Shown here: piece by piece, positions 5,757 to 38,440 of the stretch
Layout: every line of letters starts with the position of its first letter
How positions within the stretch are numbered: the first letter of the stretch is position 1
Assembly (NCBI RefSeq): GCF_003073375.1
Contig: NZ_CP029002.1
Location: 606,001 to 670,000, forward strand
Direction of reading: 5' to 3'
From: Lysinibacillus sp. 2017
GTDB taxonomy: Bacteria; Bacillota; Bacilli; Bacillales_A; Planococcaceae
Length of the DNA: 64,000 nucleotides
Program-made: the position numbers and the translations under genes
Notes under the pieces: model-generated
Told to the model about the DNA's origin: nothing
Databases searched by the model: none
The model's input: only the letters and a program-made list of their open reading frames with translations

Positions 5757-6500
5757 TGGGGGTTAGGGAAGGGTATGGGGTTTTGACGGGCTTACCGCAT
5801 ATCAGCAGCAGGGTCACGTGGTACGTGTCCCTACTACTGATACTGTTGCGGTATGCTAGGCCCGTCAATCACAGCACAGTCCATTAAATATCTTTTAAAA
5901 AAGTGAGGCGCTGTTGCAAGCAAAGGCGCCATTCTTGGATTAAAGCGAATCCATTAGATTTGGAGGGGGGAAGTGAATTATCAGAGTTAATGGTTTTCTA
6001 ACATAGGGGCTAAGGAAGTGTATGGTAATTTGACGGGCTTACCGCATATCAGCAGCAGGGTCACGTGGTACGTGTCCCTACTACTGATACTGTTGCGGTA
6101 TGCTAGGCCCGTCAATCACAGCATAGTCCATTAAATGTCTTTTAAAAAAGGGGGGCGCTGTTGCAAGCAAAGGCGCCAATCTTGGAATAAAGCGAATCCA
6201 TTAGACTTGGAGGGGGGAAGTGAATTATCAGAGTTAATCGTTTTCTAACATAGTTGTTTGAAAGTGTTTCAGGTTTAGGTGGGCTGGGCGCCCAGAGTCG
6301 CAAAGATATGTTGCACATATCTGTACGACTCTTCTTTGCGCCTTGTGCTAGGCCCCCCAATCACAGACAGTCCATTAAATGTCTTTTAAAAGGGAGGCGC
6401 TGTTGCAAGCAAAGGCGCCATTTTTGGAATAAAGCGAATCCATTAGATTTGTGGAAAAGAGATTATCATGGTTTTACTTTTAATATAAATTGATGATTAA
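5757..6500 (+). repeat. Family A repeat cluster 1, three forward units
   Basis: Three tandem units with a period of about 247 bp. Main hairpins lie at 5785-5866, 6032-6113 and about 6279-6356. The first two share the 'ACCGCATATCAGCAGCAGGG' core closed by GACGGGC/GCCCGTC. The third has a different core (AGAGTCG...CGACTCT) closed by GTGGGC. Each is followed by a conserved linker (CAGTCCATTAAAT) and a second short GGCGC...GGCGCC hairpin. Open frames here follow the hairpins and are not credible genes. Confidence 0.9.
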
Positions 6501-6504
6501 ATCT

Positions 6505-6745
6505 ATATTAAAATGATTCTCCATATAAAAGGGCAGGTGCCGTAGCTTCATATAAAATGATTCGCGATATAAGAAAACAGGCGCCTTGCGATAGCATAGC
6601 GCCAATCCGTTTTTAAAAAATTTTTAAGAGATACACCTTGTATTGGCTGGCCTTACACACAGCACAAAGAACATTTGCAAAGACTCTGCATAGAGGCTTG
6701 TGAATGTGTGCTGCGTCAGCCAAATGACTATCCCCAATACGTTTA
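6505..6745 (-). repeat. Family A repeat, reverse unit facing the forward array
   Basis: The same two-hairpin layout read on the minus strand: GGCGCC/AGCGCC hairpin near 6580-6605, then the long hairpin at about 6642-6722 (GGCTGGC ... GTCAGCC, inner CACAGCAC/GTGTGCTG). It meets the forward units head to head across an AT-rich spacer (6450-6505). The remaining sequence to 6974 shows no gene. Confidence 0.85.
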
Positions 6746-6974
6746 TCGAAATTCAATCTGTAATGCTCATTTGACTATTAGGGCTTTCACCTGACTGCGA
6801 GGACTTACAGTATTAGACGAATTAAAGTTACCAAACATCGCTTTGGGAGTGTTTTAGCAAAAGTGCTGCATATAATTTACTAATTATCCTTAATGAGTTC
6901 AATTTTATGATAACTTCAAAGGAATACTAAAGTTCATATCGAATTTAATCTACAAAAGACGAGGTGAAGAAATA

Positions 6975-7451
6975 TTGAAAAAATTAATCTATTTATGCTT
7001 TGCAATTGTTTGTTTATCAGGTTGTTTTGCTGAAAATTATAGTGTTGGACACCCTATTACTAAATTAGAAGTAAATAAGTCAAAATATAATTTACAGCCC
7101 TCTCAAATAGGATGGAATACACAGGGAGATACGACTTCTTTGAAAGAAAATGATATTGAATCGCTATTAAGCAAATCTGAAAAAATTGTTGTAAGTAGTG
7201 GACAAATTTTAAAAATTACATTTGAAGATAGCATTGAAGATGAAGGGCAATATACTGATATTAAAATCAAAATTTCAGGAACTAAAAATGGTGATAAACA
7301 ATTATTATATGAAAGTGAAATAGAATCCAGTATGTTAGAAGAAATACATTCTTTTGCTGTCCCTACTGAAAAGGGTGAATACATTCTTGAAGTCGAATTT
7401 ACTTCAAATGGCAACTTTGCAGAATATATAGGAGATTTACACGTTGAATAA
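6975..7451 (+). CDS. Small predicted lipoprotein, function unknown
   Basis: 158 aa from TTG 6975, with GAGGTG 8 nt upstream. The N-terminus is a lipoprotein signal (MKKLIYLCFAIVCLSGC) with lipobox LSGC, so Cys17 would be lipidated and the protein held on the outer face of the membrane. The rest is hydrophilic, beta-rich and acidic. The C-terminal half ('I.ISGTKNGDK...ESEIESS', 'F.VPTEKGEYILEVEF.SNG') looks like a small extracellular beta-sandwich, but I do not recognise a named family. It is isolated among repeat units and has its own terminator, so no function can be read from context. It may be cargo stranded by repeat or IS activity. Confidence 0.75.
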   Translation: MKKLIYLCFAIVCLSGCFAENYSVGHPITKLEVNKSKYNLQPSQIGWNTQGDTTSLKENDIESLLSKSEKIVVSSGQILKITFEDSIEDEGQYTDIKIKISGTKNGDKQLLYESEIESSMLEEIHSFAVPTEKGEYILEVEFTSNGNFAEYIGDLHVE

Positions 7452-7502
7452 ACTATTCATTTTATTATAACGTTCCAAAATAAAAGTTCGGGGACAGTTT
7501 AA

Positions 7503-7545
7503 AAAGGCACGAAACGTTGATTTAACAACGTTTCGTGCCTTTTCT
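7503..7545 (+). terminator. Terminator after the lipoprotein gene
   Basis: A perfect 17-bp stem (AAAGGCACGAAACGTTG and its complement) with a 6-nt loop, flanked by an A-run and a T-run, so it could work in both directions. Confidence 0.85.
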
Positions 7546-7798
7546 TGGGAACATTTTTATACCCTGTTTTGTACAGATGGAAAAACAACAATAAAATTTA
7601 ACAGAGCCATTAGAAAAAAGAATTACTTCACCAGTAGCTTTACTAACCTTATAAAGGGAATTTGCGATATAAGAAAACAGGCGCCTTGCGATAGCATAGC
7701 GCCAATACAAATGCTACGATGTTCATGTACAATCGCACTCACTTAAAGATGTACACTTTTGCCTCACTTTCTAGCATACTAATCATGAGGTGATTAGT

Positions 7799-9085
7799 AT
7801 GTACATAACGCTAGATGTTCAAACGAATTTTGAAATTAATAGTCTTTCAGACTTACCAAAATTCAAACAGTTAATGGAGAATTTAAAAATGAAAATTAAC
7901 AAAAGCCAGTTGGCTAGAGAAATGGGTGTGGATCGACGTACAGTTGATAAGTACCTAAATGGATTTACACCAAAAGAAACAAAAGAAAAGGCATCTATTT
8001 TAGATGATTATTATGAGGTAATCGCTGCACTACTGTCGGAGGATTCAAAGCAGGTGTTTTATTACCGCCGTATACTTTGGCAATATTTAAAAGACAATCA
8101 CGGTTTAGAATGTGGTGCTTCTACATTCCGTCGCTATATCGCAAAGACACCCGAATTCGCAGCTTATTTTACAGATCAAATGCGTATTCCCTCACCGAAA
8201 GGTACGACAAGATTTGAAACACCACCAGGTCAACAGGCACAGTTTGATTGGAAGGAAAGCATTCCTTTTGAGACAAGTGATGGTGAAAAAGTAGAGGTAA
8301 ACGTAGGTGCGCTGGTTCTAGGGTATTCAAGATTCCGTATATTTACTCTGACATTGAGTAAAACACAAGATGTTTTGTTCTCATTTTTAACCGAAGCATT
8401 CGAAAAAATTGGGGGTGTTCCAAAAGAGATCGTAACTGATAACCCAAAAACAATTATGGATGTGGCACGAACAGAACAGTGTTCAGGAAAAATAAATAGC
8501 AGGTTCGCCGCTTTTGCGAAGGATTTTGACTTTAAGGTACGACCATGTATAGCACGGCGTCCTCGTACAAAAGGTAAAGTAGAAACACAGATGAAATTTA
8601 TTGATGAAATCCATGCATATCAAGGTCAATTGACCTTAGAAGAGCTCTATCATTTCATTGAAAAGTTAATGAATCGATTGAATCAATCTTTCCATCAAGG
8701 GTCAGGCAAAATACCCGTATTTGCTTTAGAAAAAGAAAAGAGCTCCCTACTTCCGCTACCCGCAGAAAAGATAAGGAACTCTTACCGTATCAAGCATCAG
8801 CTTGTACAAGTAAACACATCAAGTATGGTCTCCTACAAAGCCAACCAGTATTCAGTCCCCACTAAGTACATTGGCCAAAAAGTTGGGATACAAATACATG
8901 ATGATCAATTATGGATTTATTATAACATGGAGTGTATTGCACAGCATCTTATATCGAATCGAAAATTAAATATTCGTCCTTCAGATTATAAAGAAACCTT
9001 GCAAATTTCTGCACCTCGTTATCCAGACATTGATACTTTAGCGAAAAACAATCTAAAAGCTATTGGAGAGGTGTATGACACATGA
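7799..9085 (+). CDS. istA: IS21 transposase IstA
   Basis: 428 aa from ATG 7799, preferred over GTG 7790 because GAGGTG lies about 7 nt upstream of the ATG. A DNA-binding HTH stands near the N-terminus ('KINKSQLAREMGVDRRTVDKYLNG' region). The DDE integrase catalytic core follows, with 'AQFDWKE', 'IVTDNPKT' and 'KGKVE' supplying the D, D and E residues. The C-terminal part resembles the Mu-transposase-like beta domain of IstA. It catalyses strand transfer of the element together with IstB. Its end overlaps istB by 4 nt, the normal translational coupling in this family. No frameshift or internal stop, so it may be functional. Confidence 0.95.
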   Translation: MYITLDVQTNFEINSLSDLPKFKQLMENLKMKINKSQLAREMGVDRRTVDKYLNGFTPKETKEKASILDDYYEVIAALLSEDSKQVFYYRRILWQYLKDNHGLECGASTFRRYIAKTPEFAAYFTDQMRIPSPKGTTRFETPPGQQAQFDWKESIPFETSDGEKVEVNVGALVLGYSRFRIFTLTLSKTQDVLFSFLTEAFEKIGGVPKEIVTDNPKTIMDVARTEQCSGKINSRFAAFAKDFDFKVRPCIARRPRTKGKVETQMKFIDEIHAYQGQLTLEELYHFIEKLMNRLNQSFHQGSGKIPVFALEKEKSSLLPLPAEKIRNSYRIKHQLVQVNTSSMVSYKANQYSVPTKYIGQKVGIQIHDDQLWIYYNMECIAQHLISNRKLNIRPSDYKETLQISAPRYPDIDTLAKNNLKAIGEVYDT

Positions 9086-9840
9086 TACAGCAAACAAATT
9101 ATCAGCAACTTTTGAAGAACTTAGAGTATTTAAAATTAAAACAAATGGTTACACATTTAGATGAAGTCGTGGACTTCGGCATCCACAATCAAATGTCATT
9201 TATCGATACGTTGATTAAATTAACAAATTATGAAATTGATTTACGTGAACACAATATGATTCATGCGATGGTAAAAGTGGGTGCCTTCCCAAATCTAAAA
9301 GAGATAAAGGACTATGATTTCGACTTCCAACCGTCAATCAACCCGCAACAGATTCATGATTTTCTTACATTACGTTTTATTGAGAGTAATGAAAACATCG
9401 TATTTTTAGGCCCTAGTGGTGTGGGTAAGACCCATTTAGCCTCCGCTATCGGGATTGCGGCTGCAAAAAAACGTACAAGTACGTATTTTATAAAATGTCA
9501 TGATTTGATTCAGAACTTAAAAAGGGCTCGCCTAGAGAATCGTCTAGAGAGCCGCTTGAAGCATTACACAAAATATAGGTTACTTATTATCGATGAAATT
9601 GGTTATTTACCCATTGATCCGGAGGATGCAAAACTCTTCTTCCAGTTAATCGATATGCGTTATGAAAAACGAAGCACAATCTTTACAACAAACGCTAACT
9701 TTAAATCTTGGGACGAAGTGTTTCAGGAGCCTAAGTTAGCCAATGCGATTTTAGATCGCATTTTACATCACGCAACGGTTGTAACAATCATCGGTAATTC
9801 TTATCGTTTGAAAAACCATTTAGCTCCAGAAAGTGAGTAA
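9082..9840 (+). CDS. istB: IS21 helper ATPase IstB
   Basis: 252 aa, DnaC-like AAA+ ATPase. Walker A is 'GPSGVGKTHLA' (about residue 110) and Walker B is 'LLIIDEIGYLP'. The sensor region contains 'TTNANFKSWDEVF'. IstB oligomerises on DNA and directs IstA to target sites. ATG 9082 overlaps the end of istA (ATGATA across the TGA). Length is normal for the family. The terminal inverted repeat begins shortly after the stop. Confidence 0.96.
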   Translation: MIQQTNYQQLLKNLEYLKLKQMVTHLDEVVDFGIHNQMSFIDTLIKLTNYEIDLREHNMIHAMVKVGAFPNLKEIKDYDFDFQPSINPQQIHDFLTLRFIESNENIVFLGPSGVGKTHLASAIGIAAAKKRTSTYFIKCHDLIQNLKRARLENRLESRLKHYTKYRLLIIDEIGYLPIDPEDAKLFFQLIDMRYEKRSTIFTTNANFKSWDEVFQEPKLANAILDRILHHATVVTIIGNSYRLKNHLAPESE

Positions 9841-10039
9841 TTTTATACACAGTTAAGTGAGCGTTTTTGTACATAGATTAATTGACATTTGTACGCCAAT
9901 CCGTCTTTAAAAAATTTTTAAGAGATACACCTTGTATTGGCTGGCCTTACACACAGCACAAAGAACATTTGCAAAGACTCTGCATAGAGGCTTTGTGAAT
10001 GTGTGCTGCGCCAGCCAAATGACTAACCCCAATCTCGCT

Positions 10040-10850
10040 TTATTAGAAAAAAGAATTACTTCACCAGTAGCTTTACTAACCTTATAAAAGGAATTCTCCA
10101 TATAAAAAGACAGGCGCCTTGCGATAGCACAGCGCCTTCCTGATTTAAAAAGGTATGAAAAGATACACTTAATATGGGCGGCCTTACACAAAGCACGAAG
10201 AAAAGTCGCTTAGATTCGTGCAACGGATCTAGGTGACTTTGTGCTTAGCCGCTCAAACGATACACCCAAAAGAATTACTTAGACAGTAGCTTCATATAAA
10301 AGGAATTCGCAATATAAGAAAACAGGCGCCTTGCGATAGCATAGCGCCAATCTGTCTTTAAAAAAGTTTTAAAGAGATACACCTTGTATTGGCTGGCCCT
10401 TACACACAGCACAAAGAACATTTGCAAAGACTCTGCATAGAGGCTTTGTGAATGTGTGCTGCGCCAGCAAATGACAATCCCCAATCCCGCTTTATTAGAA
10501 AAAGAATTACTGCACCAGTAGCTTTACTAACCTTATAAAAGGAATTCTCCATATAAAAAGACAGGCGCCTTGCGATAGCATAGCGCCAATCCGTCTTTAA
10601 AAAAGTTTTAAAGAGATACACCTTGTATTGGCTGGCCTTACACACAGCACAAAGAACATTTGCAAAGACTCTGCATTGAGGCTTTGTGAATGTGTGCTGC
10701 GCCAGCCAAATGACTAACCCCAATCCCGCTTTATTAGAAAAAAGAATTACTTCACCAGTAGCTTTACTAACCTTATAAAAGGAATCCCCCATATAAAAGG
10801 ACAGGCGCCTTGGTGCTTAGCCGCCCAACTGGTACACCGTATCCCACTAT
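10040..10850 (-). repeat. Family A repeat cluster 1, three reverse units and a truncated fourth
   Basis: Units at about 10040-10260, 10265-10485 and 10490-10735, plus a truncated copy at 10740-10850 that jumps from the GGCGCC hairpin to the end of the long hairpin ('TTGGTGCTTAGCCGCC'). The second and third are nearly identical. The first has a different core with arms GGGCGGCC / GCCGCTC. Upstream flanks 'CACCAGTAGCTTTACTAACC' recur. Minus-strand reading frames here are repeat artefacts. Confidence 0.88.
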
Positions 10851-10873
10851 ATTAGAAGAAAGACAAGTGCAAC

Positions 10874-10919
10874 AAAAAAATCCCATCTAATTTTACAAAT
10901 GTAAAATAGATAGGATTTA
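10874..10919 (-). terminator. Terminator of the SLH glucosaminidase gene
   Basis: Arms AATCCCATCTAATTTTAC / GTAAAATAGATAGGATT with an AAAT loop. On the minus strand the stem is followed by a run of seven T. Confidence 0.85.
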
Positions 10920-10927
10920 ATGAATCG

Positions 10928-12931: not shown

Positions 12932-12962
12932 AATTTCACACTCCCTTCATTCTCTTGTTATT

Positions 12963-13089
12963 TTAGCAATTTTTTAACAATAATAATAGGTACAATAATA
13001 ATAGACTTGCAAACTATTATTAGTAATAGTTGATATTAAACAAATTGGTCATATGAAAAATAAAAATAAATATTACTCTATAGTAATAT
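12963..13089. promoter_or_regulatory. Divergent control region with two palindromes, between the autolysin and TetR genes
   Basis: Two palindromes stand in the 300-bp divergent spacer. TAATAATAG-N9-CTATTATTA (12996-13022) is nearest the autolysin gene. ATATTACT-CTAT-AGTAATAT (13070-13089) is nearest the regulator. Both are suitable dimeric TetR operators, but binding is inference. TTAGCA-N5-TTAACA (12963-12979) is one mismatch from the WalR consensus, read toward the autolysin gene. Confidence 0.5.
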
Positions 13090-13231
13090 AATCAAACTAC
13101 CAAAAATAAGGTAAAATGTTATTTTTATGACAGAAACCTTTATTTTGAGAAAAAATTAATATATAATGAGTGTGAAATAATTGGTAATTACAGAGTACTA
13201 AACATCTAAAATAGAGATAGGGTGGAGAAGT

Positions 13232-13828: not shown

Positions 13829-13849
13829 AATCCATAGCTTGTGAACATG

Positions 13850-13897
13850 AAAAGACTAGAAACGGGTCAGATGATATGACCTATTTCTAGTCTTTTT
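13850..13897 (+). terminator. Terminator of the TetR gene
   Basis: Long stem AAAAGACTAGAAAcGGGTCA / TGACCtATTTCTAGTCTTTT with a 7-nt loop and T-run. Confidence 0.88.
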
Positions 13898-13914
13898 TAT
13901 TAGTTCATTATATT

Positions 13915-14640
13915 TATTGAGGCGAGAGTCATAGCTAATCATCATCTAATAAGGATTCTAATAAAGGGTATCGTGTTTTGGTGGGCGCAGCACATGAGCA
14001 GCACAGCTTTGTTGCACAAATCTGCACGACTCATCTTTGTGCTACATGTTAGGCCCACCAATCAAAACGTAGTCCATCAAACCTTCTTTCATAAGGTGCG
14101 GCGCTAAAAAAGGCGCCGATTTCTAATAAAGTGCACCCATTAAATATAATGATGCAAAGGGATTGTCAAAGCTAACCATCATCTAATAAGGATTCTAATA
14201 AAGGGTATCGTGTTTTGTTGGGCGCAGCACATGAGCAGCACAGCTTTGTTGCACAAATCTGTACGACTCATCTTTGTGCTACGTGTTAGGCCCACCAATC
14301 AAAGCGTAGTCCATCAAACCTTCTCTCAAAAGGTGCGGCGCTAAAAAAGGCGCCGATTTCTAATAAAGGGCACCGATGAATATATTGATGGAAAGGTAAT
14401 GCATAGCTAAACTTCTTCTAATAAGGATTCTATTAAAGTGTATTGGGTTATGGCGGGCTGGGCGCCCAGAGTCCCAAAGCCATGTTGCACATGTCTATGC
14501 GACTCTTCTTTGCGCCTTGGGCTATGCCCACCATATCAAAGCACAGTCCACTAAATTTTCTCTAATAAGGTGCGGTGCTTGCAGTGGCAGGCACCGATTT
14601 CTAATAAAGTGCACCGATTGAATATTTTAGGATAAGCAAT
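13915..14640 (+). repeat. Family A repeat cluster 2, three forward units
   Basis: Period about 240 bp. Main hairpins at about 13977-14061 (TTGGTGGGC / GCCCACCAA), 14216-14300 and 14451-14541. The first two share a GCAGCACA...TGTGCT core. The third carries the AGAGTC...GACTCT core also seen at 6279 and 30695. Second hairpins read CGGCGC-N8-GCGCCG. The unit flank 'TTGTCAAAGCTAACCATCAT' precedes unit two. Confidence 0.88.
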
Positions 14641-14699
14641 CATCACGGTTTTGCTTTTTATGAATGGATGGCTAGCTATTTATTCTAGCCACTCTTTTT

Positions 14700-15440
14700 A
14701 AGGTATTTGCAATATATTTTTATGATTGATCATGTTAATTTTAAATAGAAACACCCGTACGAATAGCTTTCCCACCCTTATAAGAAAGATTCTCCAAATA
14801 CGAAAAAGGGCGCCTACCACTGTAAGCGCCCCACGTGAATACGAGTAAGTATAGTGGATTACACGTTTGTATTGGCGGGCCTTAACCAAGCACGAAGAAA
14901 ATTCGCAGAGACACTGCAAAGTGGCTTTGTGAATTTGTGCTTTGCCCGCCAAAACGGTACACCTGAATAACTACTTTAATAAAGAGCTAATTTACTGTGA
15001 CTTTGCCTAGTTTATAAGAAAGATTCTCCGAATACGAAAAAGGGCGCCTACCACTGTAAGCGCCCCACGTGAATACGAGTAAGTATAGTGGATTACACGT
15101 TGTATTGGCGAGCATTACACAAAGCACGAAGAAAATTCGCAGAGACACTGCAAAGTGACTTTGTGAATTTGTGCTTTGCCCGCCAAAATGGTACACCTGA
15201 ATAACCACTTTAATAAAGAGCTAATTTACTATGACTTTACCTATTTTATAAAAAGATTCTCCAAATACGAAAAAGGGCGCCTACCACTGTAAGCGCCCCA
15301 CGTGAATACGAGTAAATGTAGTGGAATATGCCTTTGTATTGGCGGGTCTTTCACGTAGCACAAAGGCGAGTCGTACAGACATGTGCAACATGGCTGTGCG
15401 GCTTGCGTGCGAAGAACCCTCCATATGATTATCCTTGAAT
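14700..15440 (-). repeat. Family A repeat cluster 2, three reverse units
   Basis: Main hairpins at about 14873-14952, 15105-15184 and 15338-15424. On the minus strand each is followed by GGGGCGC...GCGCCC and a TTTTT run (plus-strand GAAAAAGGGCGCC). The third core is the CACAAAGGCGAGTCG type of cluster 4. These units lie next to the 3' end of the minus-strand protease gene, as the forward ones lie next to the 3' end of the TetR gene. Confidence 0.88.
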
Positions 15441-15477
15441 AGCCTCTAAATTAGAAGACCCATTCTCTTTTTTAACT

Positions 15478-19814: not shown

Positions 19815-19990
19815 CCTTTTCAATTAAGTCCGTTCTGCTACGCTACGGGGGACGCTTTCCTGGGGGCGTGGCTCCATCTAACTTATAGCTTGCCTTTACG
19901 GCGGCAAGCTACAAGTGGATATTCCGCGCACGCTTAATCCCCAAGGAGTCGCCCCCTGCGCTCCGCGTCACTCTATTTGGAATGGAAAAT
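19815..19990 (+). repeat. Family B interspersed repeat, copy 1
   Basis: GC-rich island in an AT-rich gap: 'AAGTCCGTTCTGC', 'GGGGGACGCTTTCC', 'GGCTCCA', a variable internal hairpin (AGCTTGCC...GGCAAGCT), then 'AAGGAGTCGCCCCCTGC'. Further copies lie at 26200 (forward) and 26535 (reverse). This resembles a dispersed element I associate with Bacillaceae genomes. The flanking 19990-20150 shows nothing recognisable. Confidence 0.7.
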
Positions 19991-20154
19991 TTTTTCGAAT
20001 AAGGTGTTTTGGATAAGGTTTATTCGATAAAGTATCTTTTATAAAAGCGAAACTAGTTTAATAGAAAGTATGTTAATCATAAATAAAACAATGGCATTCA
20101 CTTTCATTTCAATTATAAGATATTATTCCGGTCAATCCCCGCCGCCTCGCGAAA

Positions 20155-20300
20155 GCGCAAGCGGTATGATTAAACGCTTTTTAACTTTGTAAAAAGTACA
20201 ACACATTGTATTGGCGGGCCTTGCATACGGCATTAAAGACAGTAGTATGGACACGTACCACGTGACCATAATGCGGTCATGCCATAGCACGCCAATAGCT
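20155..20300 (-). repeat. Family A repeat, single degraded reverse unit
   Basis: Hairpin at about 20213-20295. Its inner part, GGACACGTACCACGTGACC, is the reverse complement of the core of the units at 5785 and 37611, but arms and flanks are degraded (GGCGGGCC ... GCACGCCAAT). The second hairpin reads CCGCCTCGCGAAAGCGCAAGCGG. Confidence 0.7.
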
Positions 20301-29877: not shown

Positions 29878-29899
29878 TAGACCATTAGGGGGTATTTAA

Positions 29900-30574: not shown

Positions 30575-30589
30575 TCTATTAAAATCCGA

Positions 30590-30628
30590 GCAGGGGCATT
30601 GTATTCGTACAATGTCTCTGCTTTTTTT
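30590..30628 (+). terminator. Terminator of degSU
   Basis: GCAGGGGCATTGTA / TACAATGTCTCTGC stem with TTCG tetraloop and seven T. Confidence 0.92.
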
Positions 30629-30639
30629 ATTGTCTTGGG

Positions 30640-31635
30640 GGATTGTCAGAGCTAGTCATCTTCTGATAGAGATGTTATTAAAGTGTATTGGGTTTTGGCA
30701 GGCTGGGCGCCCAGAGTCGCAAAGATATGTTGCACATATCTGTACGACTCTTCTTTGCGCCTTGGGCTAGGCCTGCCAAATCATAGGCTAATCCATTATG
30801 CCTTTGCATGTATTCAGGGGCGGCGCTGTTGGCGAGCAAAGGCGCCGTTTTTCTTTGAAGCGAGTCCGTTGAATTTTGTGAGTTGAAGGGATTGTCAGAG
30901 CTAGTCATCTTCTGATAGAGATGTTATAAAAGTGTATTGGGTTTTGGCAGGCTGGGCGCCCAGAGTCGCAAAGATATGTTGCACATATCTGTACGACTCT
31001 TCTGTGCGCCTTGTGCTAGGCCTGCCAAATTAAAGTGTAATCCATTATGCCTTTGCATGTATTCAGGGGCGGCGCTGTTGGCGAGCAAAGGCGCCGTTTT
31101 TCTTTGAACGAGTCCTTTGAATTTGGTAGGTTGAAGGGATTGACAGAGCTAGTTATTTTCTAATAGAGATGTTATGAAAGTGTATCGTGTATTGGCAGGC
31201 TGGGCGCCCAGAGTCGCAAAGATATGTTGCACATATCTGTACGACTCTTCTGTGCGCCTTGGGCTAGGCCTGCCAAATCAAAGTGTAATCCATTATGCCT
31301 TTGCATGTATTCGGGTGCGGCGCTGTTGACGAGCAAAGGCGCCGTTTTCTTTGAAGCGAGTCCGTTGAATTTGGTAGGTTGAAGGGATTGTCAGAGCTAG
31401 TCATTTTCTAATAGAGATGTTATGAAAATGTATCGAGTTTTGGCAGGCTGGGCGCCCAGAGTCGCAAAGATATGTTGCACATATCTGTACGACTCTTCTG
31501 TGCGCCTTGTGCTAGGCCTGCCAAATCAAAGTGTAATCCATTATGCCTTTGCATGTATTCACGGGCGGCGCTGTTGACGAGCAAAGGCGCCGTTTACTTT
31601 TAAAGTGAGTCCGTTGAATTAAGTGTGAAAGGGAC
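30640..31635 (+). repeat. Family A repeat cluster 4, four forward units
   Basis: Period 248-249 bp. Main hairpins at 30695-30779, 30944-31028, 31192-31276 and 31440-31524, all closed by TTGGCAGGC / GCCTGCCAA with the core AGAGTCGcaaAGATATGT-TGC-ACATATCTgtaCGACTCT. The linker is 'GTAATCCATTATGCCTTTGC'. The second hairpin (CGGCGC...GGCGCCG) is followed by TTTTTCTTT, a terminator-like arrangement. Each unit is preceded by 'TTGTCAGAGCTAGTCAT...CTAATAGAG' or a close variant, which has promoter-like spacing. Confidence 0.92.
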
Positions 31636-31800
31636 TGTCACAGATTCTCTTTTTGTAAAGGGATGAATATATGGATAGATAGGGTTCAATAGTTGTCAAC
31701 GCCTTCATATTCTATAATGGCAGGATTGCCTTTTCTACTAAAACTCTAGATAAATGAGTTCACAGTATTTAGATGTTAAATAAATAGACTGTGATAAACC
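31636..31800. other. Junction segment between inverted repeat arrays (cluster 4)
   Basis: Non-repeat, AT-rich spacer. From about 31740 it contains 'CTAGATAAATGAGTTCACAG' and, further on, 'GCATAGGAATGATTATCTAT', both also present in the junction of cluster 5 at 38118-38220. No gene seen. Confidence 0.7.
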
Positions 31801-32920
31801 CTCTAACCAACTGCATAGGAATGATTATCTATATAAAAAGACTGGCGCCTTGCCCGCACAGCGCCAGCACGTGAATACAAGCAAAGGGAAATGGATACAC
31901 CTTGAATGGGCGGGCCTTACATACAGCACAAAGAACATTCGCAGAGACTCTTGCAAAGAGGCTTTGTAAATGTGTGCTGCGCCCGCCCAAACGAAATACC
32001 CGAATCACCACTATAACAAAGGATGAATTCACTATGATAATACCTACTTATAAGCTTGCGTGCGAAGAACCTGCCAAATGACTACACCCGAATAACCACT
32101 TTAATAAAAGGCAGATTCACTGAACTGTATCTTTCTCAACTTTATAAGGGAGATTCGATAAATTTAGAAGACTGGCGCCTACCACTGTAAGCGCCAGCAC
32201 GTGAATATAAGTAAAAGGAAAATGGATACACCTTATATTGGCAGGTCTTTCACGAAGCACAAAGGCGAGTCGTACAGACATGTGCAACATGGCTGTGCGG
32301 CTTGCGTGCGAAGAGCCTGCCAAATGACTATGCCCGAATAACCACTTTAATAAAAGGCGGATCCACTTGAACTTATCTTTCTCTACTTTATAAAAAGATT
32401 CGTCTAATAAAAAGACTGGCGCCTACCACTGTAAGCGCCAGCACGTGAATACAAGCAAAAGGAAAATGGATACACCAAGTATTGGCAGGTCTTTCACGAA
32501 GCACAAAGGCGAGTCGTACAGACATGTGCAACATGGCTGTGCGGCTTGCGTGCGAAGAACCTGCCAAATGACTATGCCCGAATCACCACTTTAGTAAAAG
32601 GCAGATTCACTGAACTGTATCTTTCTCAACTTTATAAAAGGTTCTCCTAATAAACCCACTGGCGCCTTGCCCTGCACAGCGCCAGCACGTGAATACAAGC
32701 AAAAGGAAAATGGATACACCAAGTATTGGCAGGTCTTTCACGAAGCACAAAGGCGAGTCGCACAGACATGTGCAACATGACTGTGCGGCTTGCGTGCGAA
32801 GAACCTGCCAAAAAGACTACGCCTGAATAACCTTTTCATTAGAAGACTGAAAGAGGCTTTGTGAATGTGTGCTGCGCCCGCCCAAACGAAACACCCGAAT
32901 CATCTCTTAATTTAACCCCC
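31800..32920 (-). repeat. Family A repeat cluster 4, four reverse units plus two fragments
   Basis: Main hairpins at 31907-31989 (TGGGCGGGC / GCCCGCCCA), 32239-32323, 32482-32567 and 32725-32811 (TTGGCAGG / CCTGCCAA, core CACAAAGGCGAGTCG...). Second hairpins read CTGGCGC...GCGCCAG followed by a T-rich stretch on the minus strand. Half-hairpin fragments lie at about 32050-32095 (GCTTGCGTGCGAAGAACCTG) and 32848-32900 (AGAGGCTTTGTGAATGTGTG). From 32920 to 33086 there is only the upstream region of the next gene. Confidence 0.9.
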
Positions 32921-33086
32921 TATTCCAGTAGCTTTAACAACTACACCCGAAACGTATTTTTTAGAACAATGCAACATCTCCCTGGATTGTGCGTCTTATA
33001 GGAAGTGAATGTGAACGGACAAGGAAGTGTCATCGAATTTTAATTCGTTGTGTGCTAAAATGTTTTGCAGGAGGGTTTGTAAAATT

Positions 33087-33605
33087 ATGAAAAAATGGTT
33101 AGTAGCTGTAATGGCAGTTTTTGTATTAGCGGCTTGTGGAAACGAGGAAAAAGAAGCATCACCCAAAGAATTACAAAGCACAATTGATGATGGAACAGTT
33201 GGATTTGAAATTTTAGGTGACTCGATTCAAGAAGTGGCAAATGTTCCAGAGAACGAAAAAAACGAAATTTTATCTGCATTTAATGACTATATTACAGCCT
33301 TTAATGAAGAAGATTTAGAACGTTATAAACAAATTATTTCAAAAAATGCAAAAGGCTTTAAATATGAAGAAGATGTCCAAGCGGTAGCGGAAGTGTTCGA
33401 ACAATACGATGTTAGCCGAGTGGCGGAGGATGTCACGATTGTAAAGTATGAGGACAACGAAGCACAGGTGTTTTCTAATTTAAAAACGGAAACAAAAGAA
33501 ATTGAAACCGGTGCAGAGCTTTCGGGAGCGGGTCGACAAGTAACTGTTTTAGTCAAAGAAGACACGTGGAAAGTTTCAAGCATTTATTATATTGGTAGCG
33601 AATAA
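33087..33605 (+). CDS. Predicted lipoprotein with NTF2-like domain
   Basis: 172 aa from ATG 33087, with GCAGGAGGG about 8 nt upstream; a longer frame from 33027 would bury this RBS. Lipobox 'VLAACG' makes Cys17 the lipid-modified residue. After a charged linker, residues ~60-170 form an alpha+beta domain of the SnoaL/NTF2 (DUF4440-like) type: 'ILSAFNDYITAFNEEDLERYKQIIS', later strands 'DVTIVKYEDNEAQVFSNLKTE' and a terminal 'TVLVKEDTWKVSSIYYIG'. Such domains bind small ligands or act as scaffolds; no catalytic residues can be assigned. Single gene with its own terminator, upstream of degV. Confidence 0.82.
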   Translation: MKKWLVAVMAVFVLAACGNEEKEASPKELQSTIDDGTVGFEILGDSIQEVANVPENEKNEILSAFNDYITAFNEEDLERYKQIISKNAKGFKYEEDVQAVAEVFEQYDVSRVAEDVTIVKYEDNEAQVFSNLKTETKEIETGAELSGAGRQVTVLVKEDTWKVSSIYYIGSE

Positions 33606-33633
33606 TTGAGTGGAATTGATTCAATTCAAAGAG

Positions 33634-33669
33634 ACGTCCCTAGCATGCATATGCCAGGACGTTTTTTTC
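33634..33669 (+). terminator. Terminator of the NTF2-like lipoprotein gene
   Basis: ACGTCC / GGACGT outer stem with inner GCAT/ATGC pairing, followed by TTTTTTT. Confidence 0.75.
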
Positions 33670-33767
33670 ATATAATAAGAGAGGGATGGACATCTATTGC
33701 GATTGTAGAATATCGTTCACAATTACATAGAGATACGTTACACTAGTGAACATAGGAGTGTGGGGAA

Positions 33768-34613
33768 ATGATAAAAACAGCAGTTGTAACAGATAGTACA
33801 GCCTATTTAACGCTTGAAGAACGAAAAGCGTACAATATTCATATGATTCCTTTGGGAGTTAATATTGAAGGAACGGTTTATGATGAAGAAGTGACAATTA
33901 CAGCTACTGAATTTTATGATCGTGTACGTGGGGCAAAGGAATTTCCGAAAACAACCATGCCACCGATTGGAAAATTCGTTGAGCTTTTTGAAAAGCTAGC
34001 AACAGATTATGATGAAATCGTAACGATCCATTTATCAAGCGGTATTAGCGGTACATTTGAAGGCGCGGTACAAGCAGGTAAAATGGTAGAAAATATAAAC
34101 GTGTATGCATTTGATTCAGAAGTGGCAGCTTATTTACAAGGCATGTATGTAAAAGAAGCGGCAAAAAAAGCTGCAGAGGGTGCATCGGGTCTAGAAATAC
34201 TCGCACATTTAGAGGAACTGAAAACATCGATGGAGGACTATATTATTGTCGATGATTTACAGCATTTACAACGAGGTGGTCGACTATCGGCTGCAGCAGC
34301 TCTTATTGGCGGATTACTTCAAGTGAAGCCAGTATTAACTTTCCAAGATAAAGTCATTGTGCCGTTTGAAAAAATCCGCACACGTAAAAAGGCTTTGCGT
34401 CGAGTAGAAGAACAGCTTGCAAAAGCAGTTGAAAAATACGGTGCATTACAAGCAACAATCATTCATGCCAACTGTGAAGAAGAGGCGCGCGAATGGATGA
34501 ATAGCTTATCTGAACAATATCCAACCGTAGATATTACACTAAGCTACTTTGGTCCAGTTGTAGGTACACACTTAGGTGAAGGTGCCATTGCCATGGGTTG
34601 GTTAAAAAACTAA
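33768..34613 (+). CDS. DegV family fatty-acid-binding protein
   Basis: 281 aa; ATG with AGGAGTGTGGGG. 'TAVVTDSTAYL' at the N-terminus, 'TTMPPIGKFVELFEKLATDYDEIVTIHLSSGISGTFEGAV' with the Ser residues that hold the fatty-acid carboxylate, 'DDLQHLQRGGRLSAAAALIGGLLQVKPVL' and C-terminal 'VVGTHLGEGAIAMGW' define DegV/FakB-type proteins. They present fatty acids to the kinase FakA for phospholipid synthesis. Homologue of YviA at the same locus in B. subtilis. Single gene between two terminators. Confidence 0.94.
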   Translation: MIKTAVVTDSTAYLTLEERKAYNIHMIPLGVNIEGTVYDEEVTITATEFYDRVRGAKEFPKTTMPPIGKFVELFEKLATDYDEIVTIHLSSGISGTFEGAVQAGKMVENINVYAFDSEVAAYLQGMYVKEAAKKAAEGASGLEILAHLEELKTSMEDYIIVDDLQHLQRGGRLSAAAALIGGLLQVKPVLTFQDKVIVPFEKIRTRKKALRRVEEQLAKAVEKYGALQATIIHANCEEEAREWMNSLSEQYPTVDITLSYFGPVVGTHLGEGAIAMGWLKN

Positions 34614-34628
34614 ATTAGACATTCAGAG

Positions 34629-34668
34629 ACAGTCACTACGATATTTTAGGGGTAGTGGCTGTTTTTTG
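34629..34668 (+). terminator. Terminator of the DegV gene
   Basis: ACAGTCACTAC / GTAGTGGCTGT stem (one G-U), 12-nt loop, TTTTTT. Confidence 0.85.
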
Positions 34669-34711
34669 ATTTTAATAGATATAAAAATTCATATCAAAAG
34701 GAGACGAACTA

Positions 34712-36130
34712 ATGATCAAGCAACGATCCAAGCACTACAAACTATCAAAACTCCGCCAATTCAAGACTTACCGAGGCTTCCTCATCGAACCTGCCATCAG
34801 AAATTTCTTCACAGGCCGCATTTGGCAACGCAGTCACACCCCATTCCCACAATCAAAAATTGAAACCTATATCACGCGCGGCTATTTCGAAGTTGTGCCA
34901 GCTGTCCTAACGAAACCCAAACTAAGCTGCAGGCGCTGTCACAATGAAACTCGTCAAAAATTTGTCGCCTTCCACTGTGCAAAATGTAAGAGTACCTGCT
35001 ATTACTGTCGCCACTGCATCACGATGGGGCGGATGTGTAGCTGTGATGAATTGCTACTATGGAAATCCAAAGAAACTCCACTCGCACAACCTACGCCGAA
35101 CTTTACTTGGGCGGGTCAACTAACCACACAGCAAGAAAAAGCCGCGAAAGAGTTAACAGAAAACCTCATCCGAAATCGCCATCATCTTGTGTCAGCTGTA
35201 TGTGGTGCTGGAAAAACAGAAATCCTTTTTGCCGCCATTCACCAATCACTACTAGCAGGAAAACGTGTCTGTGTCGCAACACCACGAACGGATGTTGTGC
35301 TCGAACTGTTTCCGAGGTTTCAACAAGTTTTCCAAAACATCATTCTTCATGCCTATTATGGCAATGCCCCGCAGCAACAAGGATTCGCGCAACTCGTGCT
35401 CGCTACGACGCATCAGCTATACCGATTTGAAAACGCGTTTGATGTGATGATTGTTGACGAGGCAGATGCCTTTCCTTATACATTCGATGAAGCTTTACAG
35501 CGCGCGGTTTTAAAGGCCAAAACCTCTGATGCTCCCATCGCATTTGTCACCGCAACCCCATCTCAAAAGCTACTCACCCAACAGTCCAAACAAAACTGGG
35601 GCTATTCCTTTATCGCACGTCGTTTCCATGGCTTTCCACTACCTGTCCCAAAATTCCAATCGCTATGGCGTTACGAAAAAGCCTTTCAAAAGGGGGAAAT
35701 CCCACCAAAACTCCTGCGTTGGCTCGAACAACGACTTCAGAATAACGAGCCATTTCTCCTATTCTTCCCAACAATTGAACTCATGGAACTGGCAACACCG
35801 CTATTTCAACACTATGATTCCTCCATTGAAAGCGTGCATGCCGAAGACCCAAACCGAAAAGAAAAAGTCGTACAGCTCAGAAATGAAGAGCGAAAGGGGC
35901 TGTTAACGACCTCCATTTTAGAGCGCGGCATTACGATCAAAAATGTTCAAGTAGCGGTCATCGGTGCAGAAAATCCCGTTTTTACGTCGAGCGCATTGAT
36001 TCAAATTAGCGGACGTGTTGGGCGGAATATAGCTTTTCCTGATGGTGATATAACATTTTTTCATCACGGATTGACGTTAGAAATGGATGTAGCGCGAAAA
36101 AAGATTTTGGAGATGAACCAGTATGAATAA
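34712..36130 (+). CDS. comFA: Competence DNA-uptake helicase ComFA
   Basis: 472 aa; ATG with AAAAGGAG. The N-terminal zinc module has paired CxxC groups ('CRRCHNE', 'HCAKCKSTCYYCRHC', 'GRMCSCDELL'). A DEAD-box-type helicase follows: Walker A 'SAVCGAGKTEIL', Walker B 'VMIVDEADAFPY', motif III 'FVTATPS', motif VI-like 'QISGRVGRN'. ComFA sits at the inner face of the membrane and helps drive single-stranded DNA import during transformation. The gene is unusually CAA/CCA/ACC-rich compared with its neighbours. comFC follows with an 8-nt overlap. comFB, which lies between them in B. subtilis, is absent. No stop or frameshift. Confidence 0.96.
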   Translation: MIKQRSKHYKLSKLRQFKTYRGFLIEPAIRNFFTGRIWQRSHTPFPQSKIETYITRGYFEVVPAVLTKPKLSCRRCHNETRQKFVAFHCAKCKSTCYYCRHCITMGRMCSCDELLLWKSKETPLAQPTPNFTWAGQLTTQQEKAAKELTENLIRNRHHLVSAVCGAGKTEILFAAIHQSLLAGKRVCVATPRTDVVLELFPRFQQVFQNIILHAYYGNAPQQQGFAQLVLATTHQLYRFENAFDVMIVDEADAFPYTFDEALQRAVLKAKTSDAPIAFVTATPSQKLLTQQSKQNWGYSFIARRFHGFPLPVPKFQSLWRYEKAFQKGEIPPKLLRWLEQRLQNNEPFLLFFPTIELMELATPLFQHYDSSIESVHAEDPNRKEKVVQLRNEERKGLLTTSILERGITIKNVQVAVIGAENPVFTSSALIQISGRVGRNIAFPDGDITFFHHGLTLEMDVARKKILEMNQYE

Positions 36131-36728
36131 AACAATTACCCACTGCTTACTATGCGAGCGAGAGCTACAAATTCGCTTTGGCTGGAAGGAACTACTTGTA
36201 AAAACATTGCCACAAACGATTTGCCCACGTTGTGAAGAGCGCTTTGAACGCATCGAACAGCAACGTGAAAAAGAGATCATTTCGCTTTATCACTATAATG
36301 AAGCAATGAAGGATTTTTTACATCGCTATAAGTTTTTACATGATGTTTATCTAGCACATACATTCAACCAAATACTCCACGAGCACCTAAAAAATGAAAC
36401 CTACACGATCGTCCCCATCCCCATGCATCCAGATAACTTGAAAATTAGAACGTTTGCACATGTCGAAGAGCTATTAAAAGCCGCCAATATTCGATTCGAA
36501 CAACATTTAACAAAGCTTTCAAAAGAGCAGCAAGCCTTAAAATCCCGCGAAGAGCGACTGCAAACCCCACAGCTATTTGATGCAATCGATTCAGCAACTA
36601 TTAAAGGAAAGAGTATTTTATTAATTGACGATATTTTTACAACAGGTACAACGATGCGACATGCCGAAAAAGTACTGAAGCAAGCAGGAGCTAAGGACGT
36701 GTGCGGAATTACATTAATCCATGGTTGA
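36123..36728 (+). CDS. comFC: Competence protein ComFC (phosphoribosyltransferase-like)
   Basis: 201 aa. ATG 36123 lies inside the end of comFA (8-nt overlap). N-terminal zinc-finger pairs 'CLLCERELQ' and 'CPRCEERF'. 'YHYNEAMKDFLHRYKFLHD' and 'VPIPMHP' are typical of the ComFC/GntX family. The PRPP-binding loop is 'ILLIDDIFTTGTTM' near residue 165. It works with ComFA in DNA uptake. Translationally coupled to comFA. Confidence 0.95.
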   Translation: MNKTITHCLLCERELQIRFGWKELLVKTLPQTICPRCEERFERIEQQREKEIISLYHYNEAMKDFLHRYKFLHDVYLAHTFNQILHEHLKNETYTIVPIPMHPDNLKIRTFAHVEELLKAANIRFEQHLTKLSKEQQALKSREERLQTPQLFDAIDSATIKGKSILLIDDIFTTGTTMRHAEKVLKQAGAKDVCGITLIHG

Positions 36729-36841
36729 AAAATAGGGAATTTCACTCATATCTGAAAAAGTAACAAAGTTGTCAATGAAAAATTGGTCACGTTATGTATA
36801 ATGAATGTAGAGTATTTTCGGACGAATAAGGGGGAGGACCA

Positions 36842-37252
36842 ATGGCTGAGTTAAGAAATTGCCCGATGTGTGATGATTTTTTCAATTACACGGGATTACG
36901 CGAAGTTTGTCATAATTGTGCGCAAAAAGAAGAAGATATGTACCAAGTTGTGTACCGTTTTTTACGTAAACGTGAAAACCGTGCAGCGAATGTTGATCGT
37001 ATTATCGAGGCAACGGGTGTTGAAAAGGATTTACTTTACAAGTGGGTACGAAAAGGGCGTTTACACCCAGCTGTATTCCCAAGCTTAGGTTATCCATGTG
37101 ATAACTGCGGGCATTTAACAACGAAGGGCAAGCTTTGTGATAACTGCCAAAGTGAGCTCAAATCAGATTTACGTACATTTGAAGCGGCAAAGGAATTCCG
37201 TCAAGATGTGGTGCGCCGTGATCGTGGGACATACCATTCAGAAAAAAAATAA
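36842..37252 (+). CDS. yvyF: Flagellar-operon zinc-finger protein YvyF
   Basis: 136 aa; ATG with GGGGGAGGA. 'CPMCDDFFNYTGLREVCHNC' and 'CDNCGHLTTKGKLCDNCQ' form two zinc ribbons around a small HTH-like helical part ('VDRIIEATGVEKDLLYKWVRKGRL'). Matches the TIGR03826/YvyF family, present in front of flgM in many Bacillales. A regulatory role in flagellar gene expression is suspected. Here it is cut off from flgM by a terminator and a 1-kb repeat cluster. Confidence 0.93.
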   Translation: MAELRNCPMCDDFFNYTGLREVCHNCAQKEEDMYQVVYRFLRKRENRAANVDRIIEATGVEKDLLYKWVRKGRLHPAVFPSLGYPCDNCGHLTTKGKLCDNCQSELKSDLRTFEAAKEFRQDVVRRDRGTYHSEKK

Positions 37253-37265
37253 TCATTGTAGCAGG

Positions 37266-37302
37266 CGAAGTCTTATAAATAGGACTTCGTTTTTATTTTT
37301 AG
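37266..37302 (+). terminator. Terminator of yvyF
   Basis: CGAAGTC / GACTTCG stem with a 10-nt loop, followed by a T-rich tail. Confidence 0.7.
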
Positions 37303-37319
37303 TAAAATTAGATAAGTAG

Positions 37320-38045
37320 CGGTAGTCAATATTAATAAAGATGTTATTAAAGTGTATCGAGTATTGGCAGGCTGGGCGCCCAGATTCGCAAAGATATGTT
37401 GCACATATCTGTACGACTCTTTTTTGTGCCTTGTGCTAGGCCTGCCAAATCAAAGTGTAATCCATTCTACTTTTGCATGTATTCAGGGGCGGCGCTGTTG
37501 ACGAGCAAAGGCGCCGTTTTTCTTTGAAGCGAGTCCGTTGAATTTTGTGAGCAAGGGGATTGTCAGAGCTGGTCAAATTCTAATAAATATTCTATTAAGG
37601 TGTTTCATTTTTGGCAGGCGACCGCATATCAGCAGCAGGGTCACGTGGTACGTGTCCCTACTACTGATACTGTTGCGGTGTGCTAGGCCTGCCAAATCAA
37701 AGTGTAATCCATTATGCCTTTGCATGAATTCAGGGGCGGCGCTGTTGGCGAGCAAAGGCGCCGTTTACTTTTAAAGCGAGTCCGTTGAATTTTGTGAGCA
37801 AGGGGATTGTCAGAGCTGGTCAAATTCTAATAAATATTCTATTAAGGTGTTTCATTTTTGGCAGGCGACCGCATATCAGCAGCAGGGTCACGTGGTACGT
37901 GTCCCTACTACTGATACTGTTGCGGTATGCTAGGCCTGCCAAATCAAAGTGTAATCCATTATGCCTTTGCATATATTCAGGGGCGGCGCTGTTGACGAGC
38001 GAAGGCGCCGTTTTTCTTTAAAGCGAGTCCGTTGAATTTGGTAGA
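37320..38045 (+). repeat. Family A repeat cluster 5, three forward units
   Basis: Main hairpins at 37364-37448 (AGAGTCG-type core with one change, AGATTCG), 37611-37695 and 37859-37942. The last two have the ACCGCATATCAGCAGCAGGG core otherwise seen in cluster 1, but closed by TTGGCAGGC / GCCTGCCAA instead of GACGGGC / GCCCGTC. Units two and three are almost identical over 248 bp. Confidence 0.92.
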
Positions 38046-38220
38046 GCAAGGGGATTGTTACATCTATTCCTTTTATAAAGGGATGATTAGGCTGTATTAG
38101 TTGGCATTGCCTTATCTTCTAAATCTCTAGATAAATGAGTTCACAGTATTTTGATGTTAAATAATTACACTGTGATAATCCTTCTGACCAACCGCATAGG
38201 AATGATTATCTATATAAACC
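38046..38220. other. Junction segment between inverted repeat arrays (cluster 5)
   Basis: An AT-rich spacer sharing 'CTAGATAAATGAGTTCACAG' and 'GCATAGGAATGATTATCTAT' with the junction of cluster 4. No gene seen. Confidence 0.7.
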
Positions 38221-38440
38221 GACTGGCGCCTTGCCCCGCACAGCGCCAGCACGTGAATACAAGCAAAAGGAAAATGGATACACCTTGAATGGGAGGGCCT
38301 AACACACAGCACAAAGAACATTCGCAGAGACTCTTGCAAAGAGGCTTTGTGAATGTGTGCTGCGCCCGCCCAAACGAAACACCCGAATCACCACCGTAAT
38401 AAAGGGCGAATTCACTGTGACTTTCCCTACTATATAAAAA
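38220..38440 (-). repeat. Family A repeat cluster 5, single reverse unit
   Basis: Second hairpin CTGGCGCC...GGCGCCAG-type at 38221-38250. Main hairpin at about 38289-38372 (TGGGAGGGC / GCCCGCCCA, one arm mismatch), nearly the same as the unit at 31907. It lies just before the flgM promoter. Confidence 0.88.

What the first reader, a model, noticed from the sequence alone, without database searches (positions are those of the whole stretch)
5757..38440. Family A: about 27 two-hairpin intergenic units that may be small transcription units
Units of 220-250 bp recur in five places (5757-10850, 13915-15440, 20155-20300, 30640-32920, 37320-38440). Each has an ~80-85-nt near-perfect hairpin, a conserved ~45-nt linker ('TCCATTA', 'GCATGTATTCA') and a second GGCGC...GCGCC hairpin, in many copies followed by a T-run in unit orientation. 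Several are preceded by 'TTGTCAGAGCTAGTCAT...CTAATAGAG', which has promoter-like spacing. Promoter-like flank, structured body and terminator-like end would fit tandem small-RNA genes; a MITE-like or hairpin-DNA element is the alternative. I know of no named family that fits.
Basis: partly seen in the sequence, partly recalled or inferred. Interest (0 to 1): 0.82.

Follow-up and report, generated by a model that had tools for sequence, protein, structure and literature searches.

The report
Two-armed arrays of mobile DNA hairpins
The repeats are real: they are non-coding, probably mobile DNA elements whose long bulged hairpin has kept its shape while its sequence changed, and in this bacterium they have grown into face-to-face arrays at many sites, with no sign so far that they are small-RNA genes.

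Summary
In detail: a covariance model finds 27 complete hairpin-1 copies in the window, at the five stated places. The fetched parts of this genome hold 194 unit hits in 28 clusters. All 23 clusters with both orientations are convergent. In the 22 clusters with typed hairpins in both arms, one arm holds only A-type and the other only B-type hairpins, around a conserved centre. The fold is conserved: 25 of 29 pairs show two-sided changes. All five window sites are empty in the two nearest held relatives, and the related single ~600-bp element shows ~6-bp target duplications. So these are recently inserted, MITE-like composite repeats. The small-RNA reading is not supported: promoters are at chance level in the cluster scanned, the T-run is not conserved, and mismatches do not favour G-U as in an RNA (32:27, against 32:0 in RNase P). 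My best mechanism is a DNA hairpin recognised in trans, with arms growing by tandem duplication. The mobilising enzyme is unknown. Transcription was not measured. Closest known kinds are pneumococcal BOX and Bacillus cereus bcr repeats.

The parts
5757..6422 (+). Cluster 1, A arm: three units; hairpin 1 at 5781-5869, 6028-6116, 6274-6361; hairpin 2 at 5907-5930, 6154-6177, 6396-6419
6423..6576 (.). Cluster 1, centre (second centre type)
6577..10850 (-). Cluster 1, B arm: hairpin 1 at 6642-6725, 9936-10020, 10173-10258, 10388-10473, 10627-10711; interrupted by a small ORF that reads like a lipoprotein (6975-7451; by eye, no Pfam match) and an IS21-type istA/istB pair (7790-9840) that separates one unit's hairpin 2 (7680-7703) from its hairpin 1 (9936-10020)
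13915..14598 (+). Cluster 2, A arm: hairpin 1 at 13976-14062, 14213-14299, 14448-14535
14599..14805 (.). Cluster 2, centre
14806..15447 (-). Cluster 2, B arm: hairpin 1 at 14871-14954, 15104-15188, 15338-15426
19828..19975 (-). Module 3: second long hairpin of the single composite element (z -5.2 for 19820-19985)
20140..20163 (-). Hairpin 2 of the single composite element (read by eye from the sequence)
20210..20297 (-). Hairpin 1 of the single composite element; subtype like that of relatives G002/G015
30640..31594 (+). Cluster 4, A arm: four A1 units, 248-249 bp spacing; hairpin 1 at 30693-30780, 30942-31029, 31190-31277, 31438-31525
31595..31840 (.). Cluster 4, centre (commonest centre type)
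31841..32907 (-). Cluster 4, B arm: hairpin 1 at 31906-31991 (B2, next to the centre), 32237-32325, 32481-32569, 32725-32813 (B1); partial copies at 32054-32099 and 32850-32907
37320..38012 (+). Cluster 5, A arm: hairpin 1 at 37362-37449 (A1), 37609-37696 and 37856-37943 (A2)
38013..38221 (.). Cluster 5, centre (commonest centre type)
38222..38440 (-). Cluster 5, B arm: one B2 unit, hairpin 1 at 38289-38374

Best explanation
These are non-coding, MITE-like composite repeats. The unit is a bulged ~85-nt hairpin, a spacer of about 36-42 nt and a short G+C hairpin. SHOWN: the hairpin is conserved in structure in the genus and matched in four more genera (one of them by a single weak match). In the relatives' loci that I looked at it sits mostly as single elements. 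In this genome it forms polar two-armed arrays, A units facing B units around a conserved centre, in intergenic sites that are empty in relatives wherever I compared, with one exception. INFERRED: the fold is kept at the DNA level, as an extruded or single-strand hairpin, because a trans-acting recombinase or transposase recognises its shape; the two arms act like the two ends of a mobile element; and each arm then grows or shrinks by tandem duplication and loss of units. The elements are not dedicated small-RNA genes. The enzyme has not been found.
For: Structure: 115 distinct hairpins, 87.8% of cells paired, 25 of 29 pairs with two-sided change; shuffles average 19.4 and slid controls give 8-15. 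Spread: 15 of 16 genomes of the genus, own included; 23 of 151 family genomes and 5 of 19 genera; Lysinibacillus composti by name. Architecture: 23 of 23 two-orientation clusters convergent; A in one arm and B in the other in 22 of 22 clusters typed in both arms (12 of 154 units typed with up to 3 mismatches, partial units untyped); centre conserved. Mobility: yvyF-flgM site empty in 15 of 15 congeners; window clusters 1-4 have short gaps in G002 and G015, with no model hit in 79.6 kb; six further own sites empty in one relative each. The single ~600-bp form has perfect 6-bp duplications in 5 of 13 copies, against 2 of 156 cross pairs. One orthologous array carries 1, 2 or 3 B-like units in five species. 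DNA level: G-U to C-A is 32:27 in relatives, against 32:0 for RNase P sense and 2:18 for its antisense.
Against: No transposase was found. In 69 loci the recurrent ORF groups that I viewed (top 14) were the repeats themselves, orthologous neighbours, or common families in 3-4 places, and this genome has no PF01797 match. Target duplications were measured only for the single ~600-bp form in relatives, and with 7-mers only 1 of 13 is perfect (permutation p 0.002); for the arrays, whose exact ends I could not fix, none was measured. The own-genome strand test is skewed the other way (G-U 18, C-A 64), which could reflect a few subtypes copied many times or pressure on the opposite strand. Two-sided changes can also arise by template-switch repair of palindromes without selection. 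One own array site (2.93 Mb) holds a single unit in G010 at the syntenic place, so not every site is species-specific. In B. cereus about half of the bcr copies lie in transcripts, so transcription here would be no surprise.
Confidence: 0.6

Rival explanations
1. Tandem small-RNA genes: each unit has a promoter, a structured body and a terminator.
For: Strong covariation. A T-run follows hairpin 2 in 87 of 92 A units and 34 of 56 B units of this genome. Hairpin1-hairpin2 spacing is nearly constant.
Against: Promoter-like matches at chance level in the one cluster scanned. T-run in 0 of 10 G002/G015 units, 4 of 11 in G173 and 10 of 18 in G003. No G-U preference. No Rfam match at gathering score. 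Arms face each other head-on in 23 of 23 clusters.
Confidence: 0.13
2. Selfish MITE-like repeat whose hairpins have no function; the covariation arises by template-switch (palindrome) correction and by swapping of whole inner hairpins.
For: Empty sites and duplications. Hairpin subtypes mix within clusters while flanks track the cluster slightly more than the subtype (78 units, small differences). Loops of some relatives carry nested structured inserts.
Against: Correction should make the stem perfect, yet the 3'-side unpaired stretches stay. Hairpin1-hairpin2 distance has medians of 36-42 nt in all six groups.
Confidence: 0.17
3. REP/RAYT-like or IS200/IS605-derived elements moved by a Y1 (HUH) transposase acting on single-stranded hairpins.
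For: Bulged hairpins at element ends, intergenic dispersal, DNA-level signature.
Against: No PF01797 match in this genome, which has the most copies, nor in G010, G002 and G015; 9 of 16 genomes have one. The related single form makes target duplications, unlike Y1 elements (recalled).
Confidence: 0.05
4. Domesticated chromosomal or mRNA-end element: multi-hairpin terminator, mRNA stabiliser or replication-linked site kept for the host.
For: Arrays lie between genes, often just after a terminator-like hairpin (by eye). All array matches seen lie at 273-950 kb and 2.93-3.26 Mb of a 3.74-Mb chromosome whose record starts at dnaA (those searches scored 40 of 53 and 40 of 46 candidate regions).
Against: Absent from the same sites in the nearest relatives. 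The single subtype is spread over the whole chromosome.
Confidence: 0.05

Closest known systems
BOX elements of Streptococcus pneumoniae (passages read, PMC3049150)
   Same: Intergenic composite repeats with predicted stem-loops and a variable number of a tandem inner module; TIR and target duplications on insertion; module number varies between strains.
   Different: BOX elements are 67-637 bp with one array of boxB. Here whole units are repeated in two arms that face each other, clusters reach about 3.4 kb, and each arm has its own hairpin class. No sequence relation was tested.
bcr1-bcr18 repeats of the Bacillus cereus group (passages read, PMC3446304 and PMC6542083)
   Same: 100-400-bp intergenic repeats, some MITE-like, some with conserved secondary structure; up to 130 bcr1 copies per genome.
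   Different: The passages seen do not describe convergent two-armed tandem arrays. bcr mobility is tied there to TTTAT motifs; about 6-bp duplications are seen here for the single form. No sequence relation was tested.
REP / BIME / REPIN palindromes (start of the abstract of PMC3733652; otherwise recalled)
   Same: Extragenic palindromes, inverted pairs and clusters.
   Different: REPs are 20-40 bp with a terminal tag and (recalled) a Y1 transposase; the unit here is about 165-250 bp and this genome has no PF01797 match.
Integron attC arrays (recalled)
   Same: Arrays of imperfect hairpins with conserved extrahelical bases and variable sequence.
   Different: No recurrent ORF family beside units (an integrase was not sought by name); two facing arms rather than one array.

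Membership tests
MITE (non-autonomous DNA transposon) | Short, non-coding, dispersed in many intergenic copies | tested here: met
   28 clusters, 194 unit hits in the fetched stretches; whole multi-unit clusters of 0.6-3.4 kb are long for a MITE
MITE (non-autonomous DNA transposon) | Insertion polymorphism or empty sites | tested here: met
MITE (non-autonomous DNA transposon) | Target-site duplication | tested here: inconclusive
   Met for the single ~600-bp form in relatives (5 of 13 perfect 6-mers); not measured for the arrays
MITE (non-autonomous DNA transposon) | Terminal inverted repeats shared with an autonomous transposon | tested here: inconclusive
   TIR-like ends seen by eye in an alignment of 11 copies; no autonomous partner found
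REP/RAYT | Y1 transposase in the genome, REPs 20-40 bp | tested here: not met
   No PF01797 match in the own genome; unit far longer
Small-RNA gene | Own promoter and conserved terminator | tested here: not met
   (promoter scan covers consensus sigma-70 in one cluster only)
Small-RNA gene | Stable discrete transcript | not testable with these tools
   no RNA data held
Described Rfam family | Match above gathering score | tested here: not met
   None in the whole window. Permissive search of 7 loci gave 7 sub-threshold matches, the best GlmZ_SraJ at E 0.022 and 24.5 bits against 60 needed
BOX-like composite repeat | Variable number of tandem modules between ends | tested here: met
   a similar working plan, not evidence of descent
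BOX-like composite repeat | boxA/boxB/boxC sequence | not tested
   no BOX model was compared

The most novel reading that the evidence does not exclude
A new class of bacterial mobile element whose ends are defined by the shape of a folded DNA strand rather than by a fixed sequence: two arrays of bulged hairpins of different classes (A and B) face each other and are read in trans by an unidentified enzyme, and the arrays themselves are what is copied around the origin-proximal part of the chromosome.
Probability: 0.2. Interest if true: 0.8.

Novelty: new variant of a known kind. Interest (0 to 1): 0.55.

Why it matters
Most bacterial MITEs and REPs are short and scattered (recalled). Here a structure-conserved hairpin has expanded to about 190 unit hits in polar, convergent arrays within one genome, while congeners hold none to a few dozen copies, mostly single in the loci I looked at. 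That gives a natural series of unit numbers for studying how non-coding repeats spread and amplify, and for asking whether a DNA hairpin's shape is selected. The G-U versus C-A test with an RNase P control offers a simple way to tell RNA-level from DNA-level conservation in other repeat families.

Tried and rejected
Small-RNA genes: rejected as the leading reading. Y1/RAYT mobiliser: rejected for this genome. Autonomous partner: sought among ORFs of 69 loci and with a 5' end pattern in six genomes. Of the 22 places found, 12 kept hairpin 1 near the end; the other 10 were truncated or had altered hairpins, at least four of them with a nested structured insert. I did not run an ORF search on those 22, so a partner there is not fully excluded. 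Plasmids and phages: no match for the array unit or for module 3. The first pattern gave no match in genome contigs or viral contigs (near relatives may be left out of those collections). A second pattern in genome contigs gave eight Lysinibacillus composti stretches, each with one model match. Literature searches found no description of this repeat (listings only; passages of four papers).

The first RNase P control had four loci in the wrong orientation and was redone. In one search the printed gap was blank for three loci lying on the other strand; for those, absence rests on the nhmmer table and the flgM distance. The TSD count uses 13 of the 35 rows: left out were two G013 copies, whose ends were found, and 20 own-genome loci, whose 5' end scores were 23 or less against 26-65 in the 13 used. 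In one row (L132) I moved the boundary by one base, and the test allows shifts of up to two bases. The own-genome model search stopped at 150 scored candidates, the family search at 29 per genome with stricter filters, and the own-genome DNA searches scored 40 of 53, 40 of 46 and 40 of 78 candidate regions, so copy numbers and places are lower bounds. A2 used 80 of the 192 sources then held (191 loci and the window, many overlapping). Hairpin 2 was found in 109 of 127 units with a perfect-stem rule, and a few picks look spurious. The second possible fold of hairpin 1 was seen but not tested column by column. The orientation count (A arm on the origin side in 17 of 22 typed clusters) was made by eye.
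Full report
WHAT IS THERE. The window is bases 606001-670000 of a complete 3.74-Mb chromosome whose record begins with dnaA, dnaN, recF, gyrB and gyrA (named by eye from the translations). A DNA search of the own genome with one A unit found 136 matches, with a B unit 84; these scored 40 of 53 and 40 of 46 candidate regions. In 19 fetched stretches around array sites plus the window, nhmmer gave 28 clusters with 194 unit hits, 154 of them longer than 140 bases. At least two more copies lie outside those stretches (316.8 and 602.8 kb).

ARCHITECTURE. Twenty-three of the 28 clusters have units in both orientations, and all 23 are convergent. The other five are one half of window cluster 1 (split off by inserted genes), two lone copies of the single subtype, one single array-type unit and one one-armed array. 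Hairpin 1 falls into two groups of subtypes, A (A1, A2, A3, A4) and B (B1, B2, B3, B4). In 22 of 22 clusters with typed hairpins in both arms, one arm is all A and the other all B; the left arm of the 293-kb cluster had no typed hairpin. Of 154 units, 12 were typed with up to 3 mismatches; 40 partial units were not typed. A2 and B2 tend to sit next to the centre, with A1 and B1 outside. The centre is conserved among clusters in about three types (by eye). So the cluster as a whole is a repeated, polar object and not a loose pile of units.

STRUCTURE. On 25 diverse hairpins, 86% of paired cells are standard and 19 of 29 pairs show change on both sides, against 11.2 in shuffles and 4-8 in slid controls. 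On 115 distinct hairpins the figures are 87.8% and 25 of 29, against 19.4 in shuffles and 8-15 in slid controls; this second alignment was fitted to the model and leans towards it. Eleven window hairpins folded as DNA have z-scores of -3.0 to -8.2, with 0 or 1 of 200 shuffles as good. Unpaired stretches on the 3' side are kept. Hairpin 2 was found in 109 of 127 units, at medians of 36-42 nt from hairpin 1 in six groups, within a search window of 20-90 nt.

RNA OR DNA. If a fold is kept as RNA, G-U pairs should be tolerated and C-A mismatches not. RNase P from the 16 genomes of the genus shows this: 32 G-U to 0 C-A cells on the sense strand, 2 to 18 on the antisense. Hairpin 1 from relatives gives 32 to 27 (74 distinct), with no strand preference; own copies give 18 to 64 (41 distinct), a skew against the unit strand. 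Promoter-like sites in the largest window cluster are at chance level (3 found, 3.8 expected). The T-run after hairpin 2 is common in this genome (A 87 of 92, B 34 of 56) but occurs in 0 of 10 (G002/G015), 4 of 11 (G173), 10 of 18 (G003), 2 of 4 (G010) and 11 of 28 (other) units of relatives. The small-RNA reading therefore lacks its own predicted marks, although transcription was not measured.

DISTRIBUTION. R2 matches 15 of 16 genomes of the genus: own 150 (the scoring cap), G010 44, G003 42, G011 33, G005 20, G015 18, G002 12, G007 10, others 1-4, G014 none. In the family it matches 23 of 151 genomes in 5 of 19 genera; one genus rests on a single match at E 2e-4. A pattern scan names one host, Lysinibacillus composti DSM 24785. 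A DNA query, which is less sensitive than the model, finds none in 45 genomes outside the genus and none in the plasmid or phage collections.

MOBILITY. In the yvyF-flgM gap (window cluster 5), 15 of 15 congeners lack the array. In G002 and G015 the other window sites have shorter gaps: cluster 1 about 300 bp against 5255 here, cluster 2 237-369 against about 1830-1960, cluster 4 320-325 against 2457; the 20.2-kb site has 364 against 699 in G015. R2 has no hit in those 79.6 kb. The 20.2-kb site has no hit in 15 congeners. Six more own clusters are absent at the syntenic site of one relative each, where the gap is 40-179 bp. Against this, the own 2.93-Mb array site holds a single unit in G010, and one element is shared by G002 and G015.

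THE SINGLE FORM. In G002, G015 and G013 the unit is the left part of a ~600-bp element: TIR-like end, hairpin 1, hairpin 2, spacer, a second long hairpin (module 3), TIR-like end (11 copies). The window's 19.8-20.3-kb copy is of this kind (module 3 z -5.2), and a 501-bp query finds 57 matches spread over the own chromosome, some of them to array hairpins only. Among 13 copies with readable ends, 5 have a perfect 6-bp duplication, against 2 of 156 mismatched pairs; none of 20,000 permutations reached the observed sum. With 7-mers it is 1 of 13 against 0 of 156, permutation p 0.002.

ARRAY GROWTH. At one orthologous site beside a gene that reads like an acyl-CoA ligase (label recalled, not searched), five congeners carry a related array with different unit numbers: three B-like units in G001, two in G006, one each in G008, G012 and G009. 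A unit in the opposite orientation is found in G006, G008 and G012; in G001 its hairpin is altered and in G009 it is missing (the last two by eye). This fits tandem duplication and loss within an arm.

MECHANISM. Shown: conserved structure, insertion into sites empty in relatives, unit-number difference, polar two-armed layout. Inferred: recognition of the folded DNA by a trans-acting enzyme, arms serving as the two ends, growth by recombination between tandem units. A Y1 transposase is unlikely, since this genome has no PF01797 match. Among the recurrent ORF groups viewed beside 69 loci, none stands out: they are the repeats themselves, orthologous neighbours, or common families such as response regulators in 3-4 places.

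KNOWN KINDS. The nearest published kinds of which I read passages are BOX and bcr repeats. The resemblance is in plan and behaviour; sequence relation to them was not tested. The convergent two-class arrays are not described in the passages seen. I rate this as a new variant of a known kind.

Noticed in passing
window 7680-9935: An IS21-type istA/istB pair lies inside a unit, between its hairpin 2 and hairpin 1; the same IS end sequence borders another array at 775 kb (L034, by eye), so arrays may be insertion targets.
   Followed up: partly
own chromosome, 273-950 kb and 2.93-3.26 Mb: All array matches seen lie in these two zones around the origin (dnaA at the start of the record), while single ~600-bp elements are spread over the whole chromosome (not all candidate regions were scored).
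   Followed up: partly
arrays listed: The A arm is on the origin side in 17 of 22 typed clusters (counted by eye).
   Followed up: no
L230, L240, L241, L243, L229, L021: In relatives the loop of hairpin 1 or of module 3 holds a nested structured cassette with a motif like TGCGACGAAAGCGTAGCGACAGGAGCA next to variable stems, apparently another repeat family that inserts into hairpins.
   Followed up: partly
L173, L174: In genome G173 the unit lies inside a larger element with AGAGGCTGGGACA-like inverted ends (by eye).
   Followed up: no
L054, L055, L056, L059: A different, apparently unrelated structured insert (TTTAAGCCCCGGGCGGAAGTC...) lies just upstream of flgM in four congeners.
   Followed up: no
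window 6975-7451: A lone ORF that reads like a lipoprotein, without a Pfam match, sits inside the B arm of cluster 1.
   Followed up: no
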